Below, in pieces: positions 31,901 through 38,319 of a stretch of 64,000 bases of DNA. Position 1 is the stretch's first letter. Each line of letters opens with the position of its first letter. The notes beneath the pieces were generated by a model. That model was not told the DNA's origin, did no database searches, and saw nothing but the letters and a program-made list of their open reading frames with translations. The position numbers and the translations under genes are program-made. This stretch comes from Tuwongella immobilis. GTDB lineage: Bacteria; Planctomycetota; Planctomycetia; Gemmatales; Gemmataceae. Location: positions 930,001 to 994,000 of the forward strand of contig NZ_LR593887.1 in NCBI RefSeq assembly GCF_901538355.1, given 5' to 3'.

Positions 31901-32073
31901 CATACTGGCTCGCACTCAGTCGCCCACCCAGCGCCGAAGAACGGGCCGACGCCATCGCATTTATCGCCGATCAGCAGGCATCTTATGGCACCGCCGCCGA
32001 TGCCCGCCAACGCGCACTGACGGACTACTGCCAAGTGATCTTCTGTCTGAACGAATTTGTCTACTTGGAATGA
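28936..32073 (+). CDS. Planctomycete cytochrome c (PSCyt1)/DUF1549/DUF1553 protein
   Basis: A 1045-residue exported protein. A signal peptide (LVACLTALLGIAFVGAASAQ) is followed by a planctomycete-type cytochrome c domain with heme motif CLNCH at residues 61-65. Then comes DUF1549 (about 185-395, with GERWGRHWLDLARFAESHG and CARCHDHKYD), a middle beta-sandwich-like region (about 450-650), and DUF1553 (about 760-1030, with NRLWQHHFGRGIVATSSDFG). The family's function is not established; it is restricted mainly to planctomycetes and relatives and is often linked to degradation of complex polysaccharides. ATG 28936 has GAGG upstream. Its stop overlaps the ATG of the next DUF1549/1553 gene by ATGA, so the two are coupled. 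Confidence 0.93.
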   Translation: MNDLQNFTRRFRLVACLTALLGIAFVGAASAQPLDPDHAAKMARGVEVFKAGVRETLTKRCLNCHGGKRTESEFDLTDRDEMLKGGVMGKAVVPGQHQKSLLWQMTAHVKEPEMPYGDEKIPQKEIDQLALWIDLGAPYDKPLIDRKQATAWMQKVTPESAKQHWAYQPLKPVAVPPVRQPGWARNPIDAFILAKQEAKGLKPNPPASRAQIIRRMAFDLTGLPPTPAQVQSFVNDPAPDAEALGRVVDALLASPAYGERWGRHWLDLARFAESHGFEHDYDRPYAYHYRDFVIEALNQDLPYDQFVRWQLAGDEIAPQNPLAMKATGFLAAGVHSTQITANEVEKHRYDELDDMLATTGTAMLGLTFGCARCHDHKYDAIPQRDYYQMLATFTTTVRSDLPVDTDPVGYAKRMAEFDAAHAPFLAKLAEYEAKQLPAQFAAWEQASKGKVATPWKVFEFVDAKSGGSTLTRQPDGIVVASGKNPPIETFTLTAVATGEPIRAVRLEALKDAALVAGGPGRAGNGNFCLTNFALTVIPTPEAAKAGAKSQSVKFATARATFDQKGLPIVAAIDPDPTTSGWAVDPKFGQDHAAIFDLAEPLTVPPGTKLVFQLNFHNNVGHNIARSRLSFTSQPSQGLDLQGQGVPAQVVSALAQPADKRSPEQVKALLNWFKPQDSEWVKLDQARESHAKNRPSPSKVTMLVSSEGVPAVRLHTQGADFLDQTHFLKRGDVNQKEGVATQSFLQALMPSVDAANRWQTIKPKPGEKLSYRRTAFANWLTDVEAGAGKLLARVIVNRLWQHHFGRGIVATSSDFGVRGEPPTHPELLDWLANELIRNGWRLKPIHKLMLLSATYSQSSTNDAEKLKIDRENQLLWRITPRRLEAEVIRDNLLAVSGMIDPKMFGPGTLDENSLRRSIYFTVKRSKLISSLIIFDAPDGSVGVGDRATTTIAPQALHLMNNPQVRNAAKKLADRVAPKSEVPIEEAVTAAYWLALSRPPSAEERADAIAFIADQQASYGTAADARQRALTDYCQVIFCLNEFVYLE

Positions 32074-34286
32074 TTCGTTCGCCTTCCTTCCTGCGAGACT
32101 CAACTATGCCTCGCGTTTCCCTCCTGGCAATGGTGGCCTCCGGCGTTCTCTTCCCCGCCACCACCGTTGCCAACCCGATCAGTTTCACCCGCGAAGTCGT
32201 GCCGGTGCTCACCCGGCTCGGCTGCAATCAGGGCGCATGCCACGGCACCCCCACCGGCAAAGGCGGTTTTCGCCTCAGCCTGCGGGGGTACGATGCCAGT
32301 TTGGACCAAACCACGCTCACCCGCGAAGCGGCAGCTCGGCGAGTCAACCCGCTCGCGCCAGAGGCGTCGCTTTTGTTGCAAAAAGGGACCGGCCAAGTCC
32401 CCCATGAAGGCGGCGTGCGACTGCGACTGGGCAGCCCGGAATATCGGGTGTTGCGAGACTGGATTGCCGCAGGCAGCCCGGTCGATTCCGCCTCCGCGCT
32501 GGCGATTTCCGAAATTCGCATCGAGTCACAAGCCCTGACTCTGGAACCAGATGCGGCGATTCCGCCCATGCGAGTCTGGGCGATGCACGCCGATGGTAGC
32601 CGGGGCGATGTCACCGGCCTGACGCGATTTTCCGTCAGCAACGACGCCATTGCCCGCATCTCTCAAGACGGAATTCTGACCCGCCTGCGAGCTGGGGAAG
32701 TCGCCGTGATTGCAGAATATCGCAATCTGCTGACGACGATGCTGGTGAATTTTCTCCCACCCAAACCAGAAAAGCCGTGGCCCACTCCGGTCGCCACAAA
32801 TCCAATCGATGCCGCGGTTTACGCGAAATTGGCTGAGGTGCGGATTCAGCCGTCCGGCAATTGCACCGATGCGGAATTCTTGCGACGCTCCACGCTCGAT
32901 GTCATTGGCAAATTGCCCACCGCCGCCGAAACGCGGGCGTTTCTCAGCGATCCCACCCCATCTGCCAGCAAACGCGATCGGTGGATCGATTCCCTACTCG
33001 AACGACCGGAATTCGCCGATTTTTGGGCGATGAAATGGGCCGATCGACTGGGCTGCAATCAGCGATTTGTCGGCATCACCGGTGCACGAAAATATCATGC
33101 CTGGATCCGCGAACGCATCGCCGCCAATGTGCCCGAAGATCACTTTGTGCGCGAGATTTTGACCGCATCCGGACCAAACTACAGCCACGCACCGGCCAGT
33201 TTTTTCCGCCGATTGCGCGATCCCGAGATGCGTGCCGAGGAAATTGCTCAGTTATTCCTGGGCGTTCGCATGCAATGTGCCCGATGTCACAATCATCCCG
33301 GCGAACGCTGGACGCAAGATGATTATCATGCGCTAGCCGCATTCTTTGCTCGAATTTCGTATCGTGATGGACCATTTTTTGATCACATTTACAACAAAGA
33401 AGAGACCGTCTGGGTGCCTCGTGCTGGGGAGTGGCGGCATCCCCGCACCGGGCAAGCGATGCCCCCGAAATTCCTCGGCGGGCCGCAGCCGACCATTCCC
33501 GAATCGCTCGATCGCCGGGCCGTTTTTGCCGATTGGCTCACGGCCCCAGACAATCCGTTTTTCGCTCGCGCGGCCGTCAATCGCATCTGGTACCACCTCC
33601 TGGGCCGTGGAATTGTCGATCCCGTGGATGACCTCCGGGCGACGAATCCGCCCAGTGTTCCCGCGCTGCTCGATCACTTGGCCCAAGAGTTTGTGCGACT
33701 CCGCTATGATCGCAAAGCCATGATCCGCCAGATTTTGCGCTCGCAGACGTATCAGGCGACCAGTCAGCCGACCGAATCCAATGCCGACGATGAGACTTAT
33801 TTTTCGCACGCTCGGCTGCGATTGCTCGGTGCCGAGCAGTTGCTCGATGCCGTCACGCAAGTCACCGGGGTGCCCGAAAAATTCGCCGGCTTCCCACTCG
33901 GTGTCACCGCCATTCAAATGCCCGACGGCGAAATGAAACACCCGTTTCTGGAAGCCTTCGGTCGCCCCGCCCGCGCCCTCGCCTGCGAGTGCGAACGCGG
34001 CGTGGAAACCACCTTTGCCCAGGCGCTTCAGTTGATCGGCGGACGTGCTGTCCAAGATCGCTTGCGACACCCCACCGGCCAACTCGCCCAATGGCTCAAT
34101 GCCAACCTCGCCGACGAGCAACTCATCCAAGAAATGGTGCTCACGACTTGGACGCGATTGCCCACCCCCCAAGAGACCCAACTCCTCCGATCCGCCCTGC
34201 AAGTGCCCCCCAACCAACGCCGCCAAGCCGCTGAGGATGTCCTCTGGTCACTCCTCAACCACCGCGAATTCCTGTTCCGATACTAA
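32070..34286 (+). CDS. DUF1549/DUF1553 protein with Ig-like (Big_2-type) domain
   Basis: A 738-residue exported protein. The N-terminal domain has the motif LGCNQGACHGTPTGKGGFRLSL, a cytochrome-like module in which the two cysteines are four residues apart, unlike the CxxCH of its upstream neighbour. A short bacterial Ig-like domain follows (ADGSRGDVTGLTRFSVSND), then DUF1549 (CARCHNHPGERWTQDDYHALAAFF) and DUF1553 (VNRIWYHLLGRGIVDPVDD). I kept ATG 32070, whose overlap with the upstream stop suggests translational coupling; ATG 32106 (MPRVSLLAMVAS) would also leave a signal peptide. It ends five bases before a hairpin at the edge of the repeat island. Confidence 0.92.
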   Translation: MIRSPSFLRDSTMPRVSLLAMVASGVLFPATTVANPISFTREVVPVLTRLGCNQGACHGTPTGKGGFRLSLRGYDASLDQTTLTREAAARRVNPLAPEASLLLQKGTGQVPHEGGVRLRLGSPEYRVLRDWIAAGSPVDSASALAISEIRIESQALTLEPDAAIPPMRVWAMHADGSRGDVTGLTRFSVSNDAIARISQDGILTRLRAGEVAVIAEYRNLLTTMLVNFLPPKPEKPWPTPVATNPIDAAVYAKLAEVRIQPSGNCTDAEFLRRSTLDVIGKLPTAAETRAFLSDPTPSASKRDRWIDSLLERPEFADFWAMKWADRLGCNQRFVGITGARKYHAWIRERIAANVPEDHFVREILTASGPNYSHAPASFFRRLRDPEMRAEEIAQLFLGVRMQCARCHNHPGERWTQDDYHALAAFFARISYRDGPFFDHIYNKEETVWVPRAGEWRHPRTGQAMPPKFLGGPQPTIPESLDRRAVFADWLTAPDNPFFARAAVNRIWYHLLGRGIVDPVDDLRATNPPSVPALLDHLAQEFVRLRYDRKAMIRQILRSQTYQATSQPTESNADDETYFSHARLRLLGAEQLLDAVTQVTGVPEKFAGFPLGVTAIQMPDGEMKHPFLEAFGRPARALACECERGVETTFAQALQLIGGRAVQDRLRHPTGQLAQWLNANLADEQLIQEMVLTTWTRLPTPQETQLLRSALQVPPNQRRQAAEDVLWSLLNHREFLFRY

Positions 34287-34290
34287 CCCC

Positions 34291-34324
34291 CACCCACTCC
34301 ACACATCGTGGTGTGCAGTGGGTG
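34291..34324. terminator. Hairpin after the DUF1549/1553 gene
   Basis: CACCCACTCCACAC pairs with GGTGTGCAGTGGGTG (one mismatch) around a four- to five-base loop, starting five bases after the stop codon. A GT-rich low-complexity stretch follows to about 34360. Confidence 0.5.
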
Positions 34325-34378
34325 TATGGGTGTGGGTGTTTGTGTGGTTGTGTGGGATGCTGTCCGGGTGAGTGATGT

Positions 34379-34600
34379 GGGACGCTGTCCGAATGATGGC
34401 AGGGGCTCTGCCCCTGGACCCTGGCCAAGGGAACGGCGTCCCCTTGGCAATCCCCGTCTTCGCTCCGGTCATTTTCGGGACGTTTTTTGACGCTGTCAAA
34501 AAGCCGCCCCGAAAATGCTCGTCGCGGTGGGCCACTTTGGGCTTTCCGGCGGGGAGCATTCGTTGGCTGTCGCCCCCTGCGCCGTGTCTCTGCGCGGGAT
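34379..34600 (-). repeat. Inverted, diverged copy of the 245-bp repeat
   Basis: Read on the minus strand this matches the two copies at 34762 and 35021, including the segments CCAAGGGGACGCCGTTCCC and CAGGGGCAGAGCCCCTG. It is diverged in the central palindrome and lacks the outer CTCGCCAAAGTTGGCTGA end, so it is older or truncated. Confidence 0.6.
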
Positions 34601-34761
34601 GGGGACCCACATTCGGAATGGTCATTGAGGTGGATTGATCCCACTCAGATGCGGGCTGTCGATGATGTTTCAATTGACGGAATTGAGTCGGTCGCCGATG
34701 GGCGTGACGAAATCTTGTCGGCAGCCCATTCGCGGAAATGGATAAATGTACCCAATCGCAC

Positions 34762-35008
34762 GATCCGCGGTCTCGCCAAAGTTGGCTGAGGAGTACCCGA
34801 AAAGGGGCGTCAGCCAGCGACAATCTCTCGGCGGAAAGCCCCAGACGTGGCCCCCGCGAGGAGCATTTTTCGGGGTGAGCGGATTGTCGAAGACAATCGA
34901 TCGCCCCGAAAAATGATCGGAGCGAAGACGGGGATTGCCAAGGGGACGCCGTTCCCTTGGCCAGGGTCCAGGGGCAGAGCCCCTGCCATCACCCGGACAG
35001 CGTCCCAC
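34762..35008 (+). repeat. Direct repeat copy 1
   Basis: Nearly identical to copy 2, with a repeat period of 258 bases. The centre is a long palindrome: CATTTTTCGGGG...GATTGTC followed by GACAATC...CCCCGAAAAATG. A CCAAGGG/CCCTTGG stem and a CAGGGGC/GCCCCTG stem follow. Confidence 0.7.
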
Positions 35009-35020
35009 TCCACTTGCCCA

Positions 35021-35266
35021 ATCCGCGATCTCGCCAAAGTTGGCTGAAGAGTACCCGAAAAGGGGCGTCAGCCAGCGACAGTCCCTCGCCGGAAAGCCCC
35101 AGACGTGGCCCCCGCGAGGAGCATTTTTCGGGGTGAGCGGATTGTCGAAGACAATCGATCGCCCCGAAAAATGATCGGAGCGAAGACGGGGATTGCCAAG
35201 GGGACGCCGTTCCCTTGGCCAGGGTCCAGGGGCAGAGCCCCTGCCATCCCCCGGACAGCGTCCCAC
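35021..35266 (+). repeat. Direct repeat copy 2
   Basis: Differs from copy 1 at only a handful of positions, for example CAGTCCCTCGCCGG against CAATCTCTCGGCGG. The near identity implies recent duplication or ongoing gene conversion. Confidence 0.7.
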
Positions 35267-35349
35267 ACCTCACACCCGGACAGCATCCCACACCACTCAC
35301 ACTGGCAGAGCCCTTGCCGATACACACTCCCATCCACGCGCGAGATTGG

Positions 35350-38142
35350 TTAGGCGGCGAGGCGTTTGGGGTGGGGGAGTGGTTTGGTCGGGATGGTGGT
35401 GGGGGAGTTGAGGCGGCGTTCGTCCAGCCAGCGGAGGATGGCGGGGAGAACGAGGAGCGAGGCGAGCATGCAGCATCCGACGCCGAGGGTGAGGGTGAGT
35501 CCGAGGCTGGATTGGCCGCGGTGCGAGCCGATCATCAGGGTGCCGAAGCCGAGCATGGTGGTGAGAGCGGCGACGAGGATTCCGCGTCCGACCGCGGAGC
35601 CGAGTCGGTAGGGGCGTTTGCGATTGCCGCTGCGATAATCGTGTAGCACATGGACGCCGTTATCGACGCCGACGCCGACGATGAGTGGCAGTGCGATCAG
35701 GTTGGCCGGGTTGAGTGCGATTCCGCATAGGGCGAGAATCCCCATCGACATCAGCACGCCGAGTGCGAGCGGCACGAGCGCCAGGAGCGTCGGTTGGAGT
35801 TGTCGGAAGTCGGCGAGCAAGACCAGGGTGATGGCGATCAGCGCGTAGAGTCCGGCCCATTGGAAACCGGCTTTCATGGTGCGCAGACCTTCCAGGGTGC
35901 CAAACGGTTTGCCGGTCACTTGTGGATCGACCGTTCGCGCGGCGGCGACGAATTGCGTGAGGGCGTCGAAGTCCCAGAGGCTCGCTTTGGCGAAGGCGCG
36001 AACGAGCCAGACACCGCTTTTGCCGATATAGCGATCTCGTAAATCCGTTGGCAAGTCGGCAATGGCGATCGGCCGTGGATTTGTGACCGATTTGAGGCGG
36101 TTTAAGTCGGTGCTGAGATCGCGCACCATGCGAGTTTGCATGGCGTTGAGTCGTTGTCGGGCGAGTTGGGGATCGGTTTGCCGCAATTGTTGGGCGAAAT
36201 CGGCGAGTGCTGCGGGCAGTTCGGCTGGGATATTCGGTTGTTTGGGGAGTGTCGCCAAGCGATCGATGGCGCGTTGGAGCTTGGTCAGCAGTTGCGGCAC
36301 ATCCACCGGCGGCAGCGGCGGCAAGTCCTTTGGCGCGGGAATGTACAGCAGCAAATCGTGAATCTGACGTAACAACGGGAGCTTTTCGGATTGCTGGGCC
36401 GGGATCAGCGATGCGACTTCGGTGACGAGTCCCACTTCGGGCAGTTGTTCGTACTTCGCTTTGAGAGCGATGGCTTGTTCGGGAGTTTCGGCCATGCTCA
36501 ACGCGTGCCAGCCCGCGCCTTGGACGCGATCGACCAGAACCCGCTCCCAGGCTACGGAATCCAGCGATGGATCTTGCATGTTGAGCAAGTTGTGATCGTA
36601 AGTTAGTTTGCTGGCAGAGATTGCGGAAACGAATGCGATGGCGACTGCGCCAGCGAGCACCCAGCGCGGACGGCGGGCGGCGAACGGCAGCCATGCGGCG
36701 AGGGCGGCTGCGCGGGTGATTGGTACAATCGTGGGGGATTCCTGCGGGGTGGCGCGGCGTTCGTTGCGGCGTTCGCTCAGAATCAGCATGGCCGGCATCA
36801 CGGTGAAACAGGCGACGGCACACAACAGCACACCACAACCCGCGATCCAACCGAGTTCGACCACCCCCTGAAAGTCGGCCAACATGGTCGCAAAAAAGGC
36901 CAGCGAAGTCGTCATTGCTGCGGTCACGATGCTTGGCCCGGCGTGGCGAGCGGTGGCGAGCATTGCCTCGGTGCTGGAAATTCCCGTCGAGCGATCCGTC
37001 TCAAATCGAGCAATCCACAATACGCCATAATCGCCCATTCCAATGAGCATAACGGCGAATGTCGCTGAGAGCAAATTGAGATGGCCAACGGTGAGCGTCA
37101 GCCAACCCAGCGCCCAAATCGTTCCCGTCAATAGGGTTACGACGGTGAGGAATGGATATCGCAGGCTGCGATACACCACCAGATACAGCACGGCGACACC
37201 GAGCAGTGCGAGCCAGCCGGCCTGATTGGAGTCGCGCTGGGCGGCCAGCATTTCGTCATTTTCCAGCACCGGCAGCCCGGTGAGGCCGAATCGAATGTCG
37301 GGAAAATTCGCTTGTTGGTCCCGAATCAGGTCGCGGACGAAGGCAATCGCTTCGGCGGCGGGGGTGAAGGAACTGCCGAGCTTCTTCGGTCGTACGACCA
37401 AGAATGCGAGCGTGCCATCCGCATTCAGACAGTAGTGCGGTTCCGCGAGTGTTTGTTGCGAATCAACCGGGCGATCGAGCACGGTCGACCACGGGCTTTG
37501 ATAATGATTCTCGGATTGGAGCGAGGCTTGGGCGCTGCGGGCAATCGGCACAAGTCGTTGCAGCAATTGCAGATCGGTCGATTCCACGGGGCGGCCATCG
37601 CGGAGTTGTTCCAGCGACCAGGTCGTTTTCATGAGCATGCTATCGAGCGTGAGCGTCCGCCAGGTCATGGGGGCGAGTGGGCCCAACAGCAGGTTCATTG
37701 GCTCCAATCGGGCTTGGATGGTGCGAATTTCATCCAGCGAGAGGTAGAGCAATGCACGATCTTGCAGCGACCGTAAGTCGGCTTTGGCGAAGAGACGGTC
37801 GAAGCGGTCGGGGTGTTCTTGGAGTTTGGCAGCGAACGCATCCACTGCTTGGCGAAGGAGTTGTGACGATTGACCTTCCAGGAGAATGACCAGATCATCG
37901 TCATCGCCGAATTCTTGCAGATACGTGTTCCAACGCTGTTGATAGTCTTTGTGGGACGACATTAAGTCGTTGCGTTGGGTGTGGTATTCGAGTTGGGTGG
38001 CGGCAAGGAACAGTGAGGCGATCAGCAGCAACGTCGCGCCAACAATGACGAATCGGGGATGAGCGATCACCCAGCGGATGGTGCGTTCCAGGACGCGTTC
38101 AAGCCAGTTGGTGGATGATGACGTTGGATTGCAAGCTGTCAT
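35350..38142 (-). CDS. MMPL/RND-superfamily transporter, HpnN-like
   Basis: About 930 residues with the twofold RND architecture. There is TM1 (FVIVGATLLLIASLFLAA), a large periplasmic loop, a five-helix bundle (for example LALLGVAVLYLVVYRSL and AGCGVLLCAVACFTVMPAML), then the same plan repeated (WVLAGAVAIAFVSAISA, a second loop, and a final helix bundle with LIALPLIVGVGVDNGVHVLHDY). GVGVDNGVHVLHDY corresponds to the conserved helix-4 Asp region of MMPL proteins. The overall form resembles hopanoid transporter HpnN and other lipid exporters, but no hopanoid genes are nearby and the cargo is unknown. ATG 38142 has GGAGG about 11 bases upstream. A TTGACA-17-GAAAAT promoter lies about 150 bases before it. 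Confidence 0.88.
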   Translation of the reverse strand: MTACNPTSSSTNWLERVLERTIRWVIAHPRFVIVGATLLLIASLFLAATQLEYHTQRNDLMSSHKDYQQRWNTYLQEFGDDDDLVILLEGQSSQLLRQAVDAFAAKLQEHPDRFDRLFAKADLRSLQDRALLYLSLDEIRTIQARLEPMNLLLGPLAPMTWRTLTLDSMLMKTTWSLEQLRDGRPVESTDLQLLQRLVPIARSAQASLQSENHYQSPWSTVLDRPVDSQQTLAEPHYCLNADGTLAFLVVRPKKLGSSFTPAAEAIAFVRDLIRDQQANFPDIRFGLTGLPVLENDEMLAAQRDSNQAGWLALLGVAVLYLVVYRSLRYPFLTVVTLLTGTIWALGWLTLTVGHLNLLSATFAVMLIGMGDYGVLWIARFETDRSTGISSTEAMLATARHAGPSIVTAAMTTSLAFFATMLADFQGVVELGWIAGCGVLLCAVACFTVMPAMLILSERRNERRATPQESPTIVPITRAAALAAWLPFAARRPRWVLAGAVAIAFVSAISASKLTYDHNLLNMQDPSLDSVAWERVLVDRVQGAGWHALSMAETPEQAIALKAKYEQLPEVGLVTEVASLIPAQQSEKLPLLRQIHDLLLYIPAPKDLPPLPPVDVPQLLTKLQRAIDRLATLPKQPNIPAELPAALADFAQQLRQTDPQLARQRLNAMQTRMVRDLSTDLNRLKSVTNPRPIAIADLPTDLRDRYIGKSGVWLVRAFAKASLWDFDALTQFVAAARTVDPQVTGKPFGTLEGLRTMKAGFQWAGLYALIAITLVLLADFRQLQPTLLALVPLALGVLMSMGILALCGIALNPANLIALPLIVGVGVDNGVHVLHDYRSGNRKRPYRLGSAVGRGILVAALTTMLGFGTLMIGSHRGQSSLGLTLTLGVGCCMLASLLVLPAILRWLDERRLNSPTTIPTKPLPHPKRLAA

Positions 38143-38290
38143 GGAACTGTTCGCCTCCGGGAATCCATTCCGATCGGCGGCGATTTTGACTTGGAAGTCG
38201 AAATCTCGCAAGGCAGAAAAAACCCCGCAGAATCTTGGTCGAGACCAAGACCCATTGGGGCCGGAACAGAGAAGAGGCTGAACAGGATTA

Positions 38291-38319
38291 ATTTTCCGCA
38301 AAGCGGGAAAAAATGTCAA
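38291..38319 (-). promoter_or_regulatory. Predicted promoter of the RND transporter gene
   Basis: Minus-strand TTGACA (38314-38319) and GAAAAT (38291-38296) are 17 bases apart. The leader downstream contains the 16-base palindrome CTTGGTCGAGACCAAG-like element at 38234-38249, which could fold in the 5' untranslated region. Confidence 0.4.

What the first reader, a model, noticed from the sequence alone, without database searches (positions are those of the whole stretch)
34350..35293. Stem-loop repeat island bounded by a perfect 21-bp inverted repeat
Two near-identical 245-base direct copies (period 258) and one older inverted copy fill a gap between convergent genes. Each copy has a central palindrome of about 50 bases and two more hairpins. 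It has no coding content, and the ends match exactly in inverted orientation over 944 bases. It could be a mobile non-coding element, a family of structured RNAs, or a multi-terminator.
Basis: seen in the sequence. Interest (0 to 1): 0.55.

Follow-up and report, generated by a model that had tools for sequence, protein, structure and literature searches.

The report
Cross-folding mobile repeat in a planctomycete
The gap holds one copy of a scattered, self-folding DNA repeat with long mirrored arms that mostly sits where two genes end against each other, sometimes encloses a gene, and has a structural cousin in another bacterial genus; what moves it is unknown.

Summary
The 258-bp unit belongs to a dispersed family: 41 arm units at E<=3.5e-14, about 24 sites in this 6.69-Mb genome. 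Fourteen sites hold a paired element: [C/A-rich tail]-[arm of three hairpins]-[core]-[inverted arm]-[tail]; the window copy has a tandem duplicate of one arm. The hairpins covary. Whole elements look like the unit of dispersal: a 1.7-kb version with a DUF1559 gene occurs at three unrelated sites, and 28 of 32 arm units match an arm other than their own inverted partner best. I found no transposase among the ORFs tested, no Y1 transposase gene, no target-site duplication and no other carrier of the exact end motif. Eleven of 14 paired elements lie between convergent genes (background 28 of 151 gaps) and 11 of 14 near the inferred origin. An arm model finds a second family with the same layout in one other genus, where the central hairpin is hypervariable yet self-complementary. 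I read this as a new family of non-autonomous foldback elements, perhaps with a cross-shaped fold. Mobility is inferred; a terminator role is possible, unproven.

The parts
34287..34394 (.). left outer tail, G/T-rich on + (C/A-rich read outward), from the left gene's stop codon to the left arm
34350..34370 (+). 21-bp left end, exact reverse complement of 35273-35293; variant of the tail motif, not a family-wide terminus
34377..34576 (-). left arm (inverted unit, H1 type gamma)
   Evidence: (84% to unit 1), (model match 34395-34520 -, 116.7 bits)
34400..34416 (.). hairpin H3, left arm
34425..34447 (.). hairpin H2, left arm
34470..34517 (.). hairpin H1, left arm, type gamma
34577..34751 (.). core between the arms, homologous among the nine short elements, no cargo gene here
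34752..35009 (+). right arm, unit 1 (H1 type alpha)
34864..34915 (.). hairpin H1, right arm unit 1, type alpha
34938..34960 (.). hairpin H2, right arm unit 1
34969..34985 (.). hairpin H3, right arm unit 1
35010..35267 (+). right arm, unit 2: tandem duplicate of unit 1, 96% identical
35122..35173 (.). hairpin H1, right arm unit 2
35196..35218 (.). hairpin H2, right arm unit 2
35227..35243 (.). hairpin H3, right arm unit 2
35244..35349 (.). right outer tail, C/A-rich on +; copies of the tail motif at 35248-35272 and 35273-35297
35273..35293 (-). 21-bp right end, exact reverse complement of 34350-34370
32070..34286 (+). left flanking gene, DUF1549/DUF1553 (PSCyt2, PSD1)
35350..38319 (-). right flanking gene, MMPL-family transporter, convergent

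Best explanation
A copy of a new family of non-autonomous, long-inverted-repeat (foldback-like) elements. Shown: each paired element has two inverted arms of covarying hairpins (H3, H2, H1), a core and, in this genome, C/A-rich outer tails; such elements lie at unrelated sites; some cores hold an AT-rich gene in place of the short core. Inferred: whole elements were copied to new sites by an unidentified enzyme acting in trans; the form acted on may be a folded strand (arm-arm stem with H1-left, core and H1-right as branches), and repair of folded DNA may be what keeps H1 self-complementary while it drifts. Copies survive mostly between convergent genes, where no promoter is hit; there the hairpins and C-rich tails may also stop or trim read-through transcripts.
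For: Dispersal: 41 units, about 24 sites (32 of the 41 built the model). Whole element as unit: of 32 arm units in the 14 paired elements, 28 have a best match that is not their own inverted partner (the 4 exceptions are the two outer arms of L044, one poorly aligned inner arm of L044 at 0.566, and a tie in L033); the 1.69-kb DUF1559 element aligns arm to arm between L051 and L052 at 89% and with L049, with different neighbours. Structure: own genome 95.5% of cells paired against at most 53.7% when slid, 76 double-change cells against 29.4 in shuffles; G032 family 97.9% against at most 57.3%, 86 against 25.7, 11 of 18 H1 pairs with double changes. Cross fold: five of six G032 elements folded as RNA show it plainly, the sixth (L198) with its left linker drawn into the H1 branch (no shuffles); one of them as DNA has z -23. 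In G032 the H2/H3/linker parts of partner arms are homogenised (0 of 5000 permutations as high), H1 is not. Cargo: six cores of GC 0.47-0.51 against 0.535-0.605 in 20 sampled stretches.
Against: No empty site, strain polymorphism or transposition event seen. No target-site duplication (longest shared flank word: mean 7.57 within elements, 7.71 between). No Y1 (RAYT-type) transposase gene and no other carrier of the exact end motif (33 of 33 exact hits in family sites; of 15 one-mismatch hits 4 lie elsewhere). That partner arms carry different H1s is weaker than it first looked: 12 of 5000 permutations are as low for the eight clear short elements, but 317 of 5000 if L033 is counted by its outer arm and 1623 of 5000 over 13 elements with the cargo ones included; the three DUF1559 elements have near-equal H1s (0.94-0.98) and L044 has a 245-nt exact inverted repeat. 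Homogenisation of the arm bases holds in G032 but not here (0.853 within, 0.866 between). I did not test the folds of this genome's elements against the cross. In one search the number of pairs with a double change (8) does not exceed shuffles (7.3). Convergent placement fails in G032 (1 of 10). Of 58 relatives only one gave a convincing model match (strict filters).
Confidence: 0.6

Rival explanations
1. A bidirectional transcription barrier selected at convergent gene ends: hairpins protect mRNA 3' ends and the C-rich, G-poor tails load Rho, so that each read-through transcript ends before it runs antisense into the opposite gene. Copies arose by recombination and are kept by selection.
For: 11 of 14 paired elements between convergent genes against 28 of 151 gaps of at least 50 bp (Fisher p 8e-6; the background still contains family sites, which makes it conservative); outward 60-nt tails C:G 3.1 against 0.90 in native convergent gaps, 19 of 28 against 0 of 36 with C+A of at least 70% (background gaps under 60 or over 600 bp and family sites left out); Rho RNA-binding domain found 3 times in the genome; covarying hairpins.
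Against: Native convergent gaps without the element have a median of 116 bp and by eye many already hold a hairpin; no excess of intrinsic-terminator matches; L031 and L051, and probably L033, lie between same-direction genes; the G032 family lacks the convergent bias; cargo genes unexplained.
Confidence: 0.21
2. A chromosome-architecture site, for example a gyrase or nucleoid-protein binding array as proposed for BIMEs (recalled), placed where convergent transcription piles up positive supercoils and concentrated near the replication origin.
For: 11 of 14 paired elements within 0.7 Mb of the inferred origin (binomial p 6e-6, threshold chosen after seeing the data); Rayleigh statistic of 23 sites reached in 1 of 20000 simulations.
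Against: Only about 24 sites; no protein-binding motif sought or found; cargo genes unexplained; the origin is inferred from GC skew, while the best DnaA-domain match lies at 1.16 Mb and a weaker one at 0.5 kb.
Confidence: 0.1
3. Remnants of an extinct ordinary transposon (MITEs of a lost IS) that merely decay; structure is a by-product of long inverted ends.
For: No autonomous partner found; several partial or solo copies.
Against: Double compensatory changes in both genera show that the local hairpins are kept; the three-hairpin layout is shared by two genera; no target-site duplication.
Confidence: 0.09

Closest known systems
REP / BIME / REPIN elements with RAYT transposases
   Same: Intergenic palindromes, often paired in opposite orientation and downstream of genes (PMC3733652, abstract and passages)
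   Different: Arms of roughly 215-258 bp with three hairpins, not 20-40 bp; no Y1 transposase gene; no GTAG or CGTC within 8 nt of H2 in 32 of 32 rows; low copy number
[quoted passage not shown]
   Same: Non-coding, inverted ends, dispersed copies, no enzyme inside
   Different: Arms are long and built of hairpins; no target-site duplication found; no parent element with the same ends found
Mobile insertion cassettes (MIC) and TIMEs (definitions recalled; papers seen as listings)
   Same: Passenger gene between inverted ends, no transposase inside
   Different: No IS or Tn3 ends identified; most copies carry no gene; ends are structured arms of about 230 bp
Eukaryotic foldback elements (FB, TU; recalled, not read here)
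   Same: Long inverted arms with repeated subunits, variable core that may hold unrelated sequence
   Different: Bacterial host, hairpin-bearing arms, no evidence of common descent
AAV inverted terminal repeats (recalled; analogy of fold only)
   Same: Long stem with two differing side hairpins
   Different: No viral genes; the fold here is predicted only

Membership tests
REP/RAYT | RAYT (Y1_Tnp, PF01797) gene in the genome | tested here: not met
   0 matches in G000; the control rings in 5 of 14 named genomes
REP/RAYT | palindromic unit of 20-40 bp | tested here: not met
   arms about 215-258 bp; definition from PMC3733652 (passages)
REP/RAYT | GTAG or CGTC tag at one end of the palindrome | tested here: not met
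   none within 8 nt of H2 in 32 rows; 1 of 32 rows within 8 nt 3' of H1; H3 and the 5' side of H1 not tested
MITE | terminal inverted repeats and dispersed non-coding copies | tested here: met
MITE | target-site duplication | tested here: not met
   14 paired elements examined, no excess over between-element comparison; exact ends are uncertain, and some mobile elements leave none
MITE | ends shared with an autonomous element | tested here: not met
   all 33 exact end-motif hits in this genome are family sites; a partner outside this genome is not excluded
Mobile insertion cassette | passenger gene between IS ends, mobilised in trans | tested here: inconclusive
   passenger genes present; IS ends not searched in an IS library; mobilisation not testable
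Intrinsic terminator | G+C-rich hairpin followed by a T run | tested here: not met
   window island only: 1 found, mean 0.9 in shuffles
Rho-dependent terminator | C-rich, G-poor stretch, and Rho in the genome | tested here: met
   composition, Rho domain
Rho-dependent terminator | termination activity | not testable with these tools
   no expression data
Any Rfam family | match at gathering score | tested here: not met
   0 matches in the whole window
Eukaryotic foldback element | common descent or shared enzyme | not tested
   analogy of layout only, recalled

The most novel reading that the evidence does not exclude
A bacterial foldback element class whose mobile form is a cross-folded single DNA strand: the arms pair as a stem, H1-left, core and H1-right stand out as branches, and repair of mismatches in that folded form rewrites H1 so that it drifts freely yet stays self-complementary. 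The class spans at least two genera of one planctomycete family, accumulates near the origin and captures genes.
Probability: 0.18. Interest if true: 0.82.

Novelty: new variant of a known kind. Interest (0 to 1): 0.57.

Why it matters
If mobile, this is a transposon-like element with unusually elaborate ends and no known enzyme, shared in layout by two genera, that carries genes of large protein families (DUF1559, WG repeats). The hypervariable but self-complementary H1 of the second genus is a natural record by which one could tell whether compensatory change comes from selection on RNA or from repair of folded DNA.

Tried and rejected
Transposon with a defined terminus at the 21-bp repeat: rejected, the repeat is a local variant of a reiterated tail motif. 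Target-site duplications: none seen. RAYT: none. Rfam: none in the window. Plasmids and phages by distant blastn with a 731-nt element: no match; plasmids with a 76-nt piece: no match. Viral contigs: the cargo protein gave nothing; 12 loci match a short H2 pattern, of which 9 gave no match to the arm model at E 0.1 and 3 only 14.8-16.7 bits over the H2 part. Public genomes: two exact-pattern scans, 0 hits; the tool says that near-own records may be left out. DUF1559 relatives in other genera: 20 stretches read, none with long inverted arms around the gene by BLAST at E 0.01, except a 142-nt inverted match in L127 that I took for duplicated coding sequence and did not check.

Different H1s in partner arms as a rule: my first count (9 of 9, 7 of 5000) paired L033 by its inner left unit; recounted the signal is 12 of 5000 without L033, 317 of 5000 with its outer arm, and absent (1623 of 5000) over 13 elements with the cargo ones.

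Gene orientation: codon score alone gave 16 of 21 determinable sites (of 23) as convergent, 11 of them among the 14 paired elements; after Pfam checks still 11 of 14, but L051 became same-direction and L048 convergent; L031 same-direction; L033 same-direction with an untested left gene (no Pfam match). Without a Pfam match on one or both sides, so resting on codon score: L035 right, L036 both, L044 left (right only weak), L048 left, L050 both. The background count of 28 of 151 was not hand-checked.

Promoters: one search lists 4 sigma-70-like matches in the island against 0.2 in shuffles; they lie in the repeated hairpins and I did not follow them up. Literature: searches; in the titles and abstract starts of these capped lists I saw nothing on these elements. 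I read passages of PMC3733652 and PMC10969869; all other papers as listings only.

Full report
What is there. The island 34287-35349 lies between two convergent genes, a DUF1549/DUF1553 gene (32070-34286, +) and an MMPL-family transporter (35350-38319, -). It holds an inverted arm (34377-34576), a core (34577-34751) and two tandem copies of the opposite arm (34752-35009, 35010-35267; 96% identical). The 21-bp ends are exact reverse complements. Each arm has three hairpins: H3 (CAGGGGC...GCCCCTG here; GTGGGAC...GTCCCAC in other copies), H2 (CCAAGGG...CCCTTGG) and the long central H1. The whole folds at -643.7 kcal/mol as RNA, z -41 on 20 shuffles.

A family. In this genome (6,690,754 bp, one contig; its size made me think of Tuwongella immobilis, from memory and unverified) the unit gives 54 matches (40 of 61 candidates scored), and a covariance model of 32 arms gives 41 matches at E<=3.5e-14; with one at 4.8e-6 these make about 24 sites (150 of 5083 candidates scored). 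Fourteen sites have a pair of inverted arms; a fifteenth (1.016 Mb) may have a remnant of the second arm (E 0.013). The rest are single or partial. The H2 pattern occurs at 38 places, 37 of them in family sites; the exact tail motif at 33 places, all in family sites, while 4 of 15 one-mismatch hits lie elsewhere.

Structure is kept. On 31 distinct arms 95.5% of cells pair, at most 53.7% when partners are slid; 76 cells have both sides changed against 29.4 in shuffles. The number of pairs with a double change (8) is not above shuffles (7.3), nor are the further pair types (16 against 18.1). Four gamma-type rows are out of register by one column in H1.

Whole elements are the unit. Of 32 arm units in the 14 paired elements, 28 have a best match other than their own inverted partner; the exceptions are the outer arms of L044, a poorly aligned inner arm of L044 and a tie in L033. 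The two right units of the window match each other best, as tandem copies. In eight of nine short elements one arm has H1 of type alpha and the other beta or gamma; in L033 this holds for the inner left unit, while its outer left arm is beta like the right arm. Partner H1s are less alike than random pairs in the eight (12 of 5000 permutations as low), less clearly with L033's outer arm (317 of 5000), and not over 13 elements with the cargo ones (1623 of 5000). Cores of the nine short elements are homologous.

Cargo. L049, L051 and L052 hold a 291-aa gene; the L052 copy matches a prepilin-type N-methylation motif and DUF1559, and the other two are 92% and 87% identical to it. Other members of this family in the genome (95 matches in all) reach at most 41% over alignments of 180 residues or more. 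The cassettes align up to the arms and not clearly beyond. dN/dS is 0.22-0.26; residues 175-225 have dS 0.49-1.26, which suggests segmental exchange, and the 290 bp upstream are 97-98% identical. L048 holds a WG-repeat protein, L041 (the doubtful fifteenth pair) a 115-aa ORF with only a sub-threshold Pfam match, L044 a 112-aa ORF without a match. The six cores have GC 0.47-0.51 and the two short cores measured 0.52 and 0.56; 20 sampled 20-kb stretches have 0.535-0.605. In relatives the cargo's kin are common (34 of 58 genomes besides this one at E 1e-20).

Placement. Eleven of 14 paired elements lie between convergent genes, by codon score and, where it gave a match, Pfam; background 28 of 151 gaps of at least 50 bp in the window and 20 stretches, family sites included (Fisher p 8e-6). 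GC skew is positive in the ten stretches from 0 to 3.02 Mb and negative in nine of the ten beyond (one near zero), which puts the origin near contig position 0; the best DnaA-domain match, however, is at 1.16 Mb, with a weaker one at 0.5 kb. Eleven of 14 paired elements lie within 0.7 Mb of position 0 (21% of the genome; threshold post hoc; p 6e-6), 13 of 23 sites in all; the site at 5.54 Mb, found later, is not in that count. By hand, 8 of 10 elements with differing arms have the alpha arm on the side away from the origin (L033 by its inner unit): suggestive only. Outward tails of 60 nt have C:G 3.1 against 0.90 in native convergent gaps, and C+A of at least 70% in 19 of 28 against 0 of 36. 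Rho is encoded. A Rho-type barrier is therefore possible; intrinsic terminators are not in excess.

Elsewhere. A DNA search of 58 relatives gave one 30-nt match. The arm model gave a strong match in one of 58, G032 (E 1.5e-14), and weak ones in two more that look like a lone hairpin and coding sequence on reading. The G032 element, searched over G032 and 57 other genomes, is repeated in G032 at about 11 places and otherwise gave only a short match in G016. The model hits all 10 fetched G032 stretches, 19 arms, at E 6.8e-9 or better. The layout H3-H2-linker-H1-core-inverted arm is the same. In G032 the H1 stem is hypervariable: 11 of 18 pairs show double changes and 98.8% of cells pair. Within 8 elements the H2/H3/linker parts of partner arms are homogenised (0.956 against 0.866, 0 of 5000 permutations as high), H1 is not (0.69 against 0.71). 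Of six elements folded, five give plainly an arm-arm stem with two H1 branches and a core between them, and L198 a variant of it; L193 as DNA has z -23. In G032 sites are not biased to convergent genes (1 of 10 with both neighbours called).

Reading. Shown: a dispersed, structure-keeping repeat family made of whole elements, with occasional cargo, and a structural relative in one other genus. Inferred: mobility in trans and a cross-folded DNA form. Against: no enzyme, no target-site duplication, no empty site; elements with equal H1s; homogenisation in one genus only. Whether the compensatory changes come from repair of folded DNA or from RNA function cannot be decided here.

Noticed in passing
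L123 (G027), L126 (G010): DUF1559 relatives of the cargo gene are flanked by direct repeats (122 bp 96%; 600 bp 95.7%), which may mark another kind of cassette.
   Followed up: no
L049, L051, L052: 290 bp upstream of the cargo DUF1559 gene are 97-98% identical while dS of the gene is 0.22-0.34; a variable segment at residues 175-225.
   Followed up: partly
L044 from 2056 and from 3134, 245 nt each: Outer arms form an exact 245-nt inverted repeat; older, diverged arms lie inside.
   Followed up: no
L156 1156-1617 (G032): The core holds a further long hairpin (GGGCACGTT...AACGTGCCC), perhaps another repeat nested in the element.
   Followed up: no
L033 2912-4285: A phage portal protein gene lies next to an element.
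   Followed up: no
window 34288-34326: Possible native hairpin just after the left gene's stop codon, before the element tail (read by eye).
   Followed up: no
window 34471-34516, 34913-34941, 35171-35199: Four sigma-70-like promoter matches inside the hairpin region against 0.2 expected in shuffles.
   Followed up: no
L038: Two partial copies 1671 bp apart with matching flanks, apparently a local duplication.
   Followed up: no
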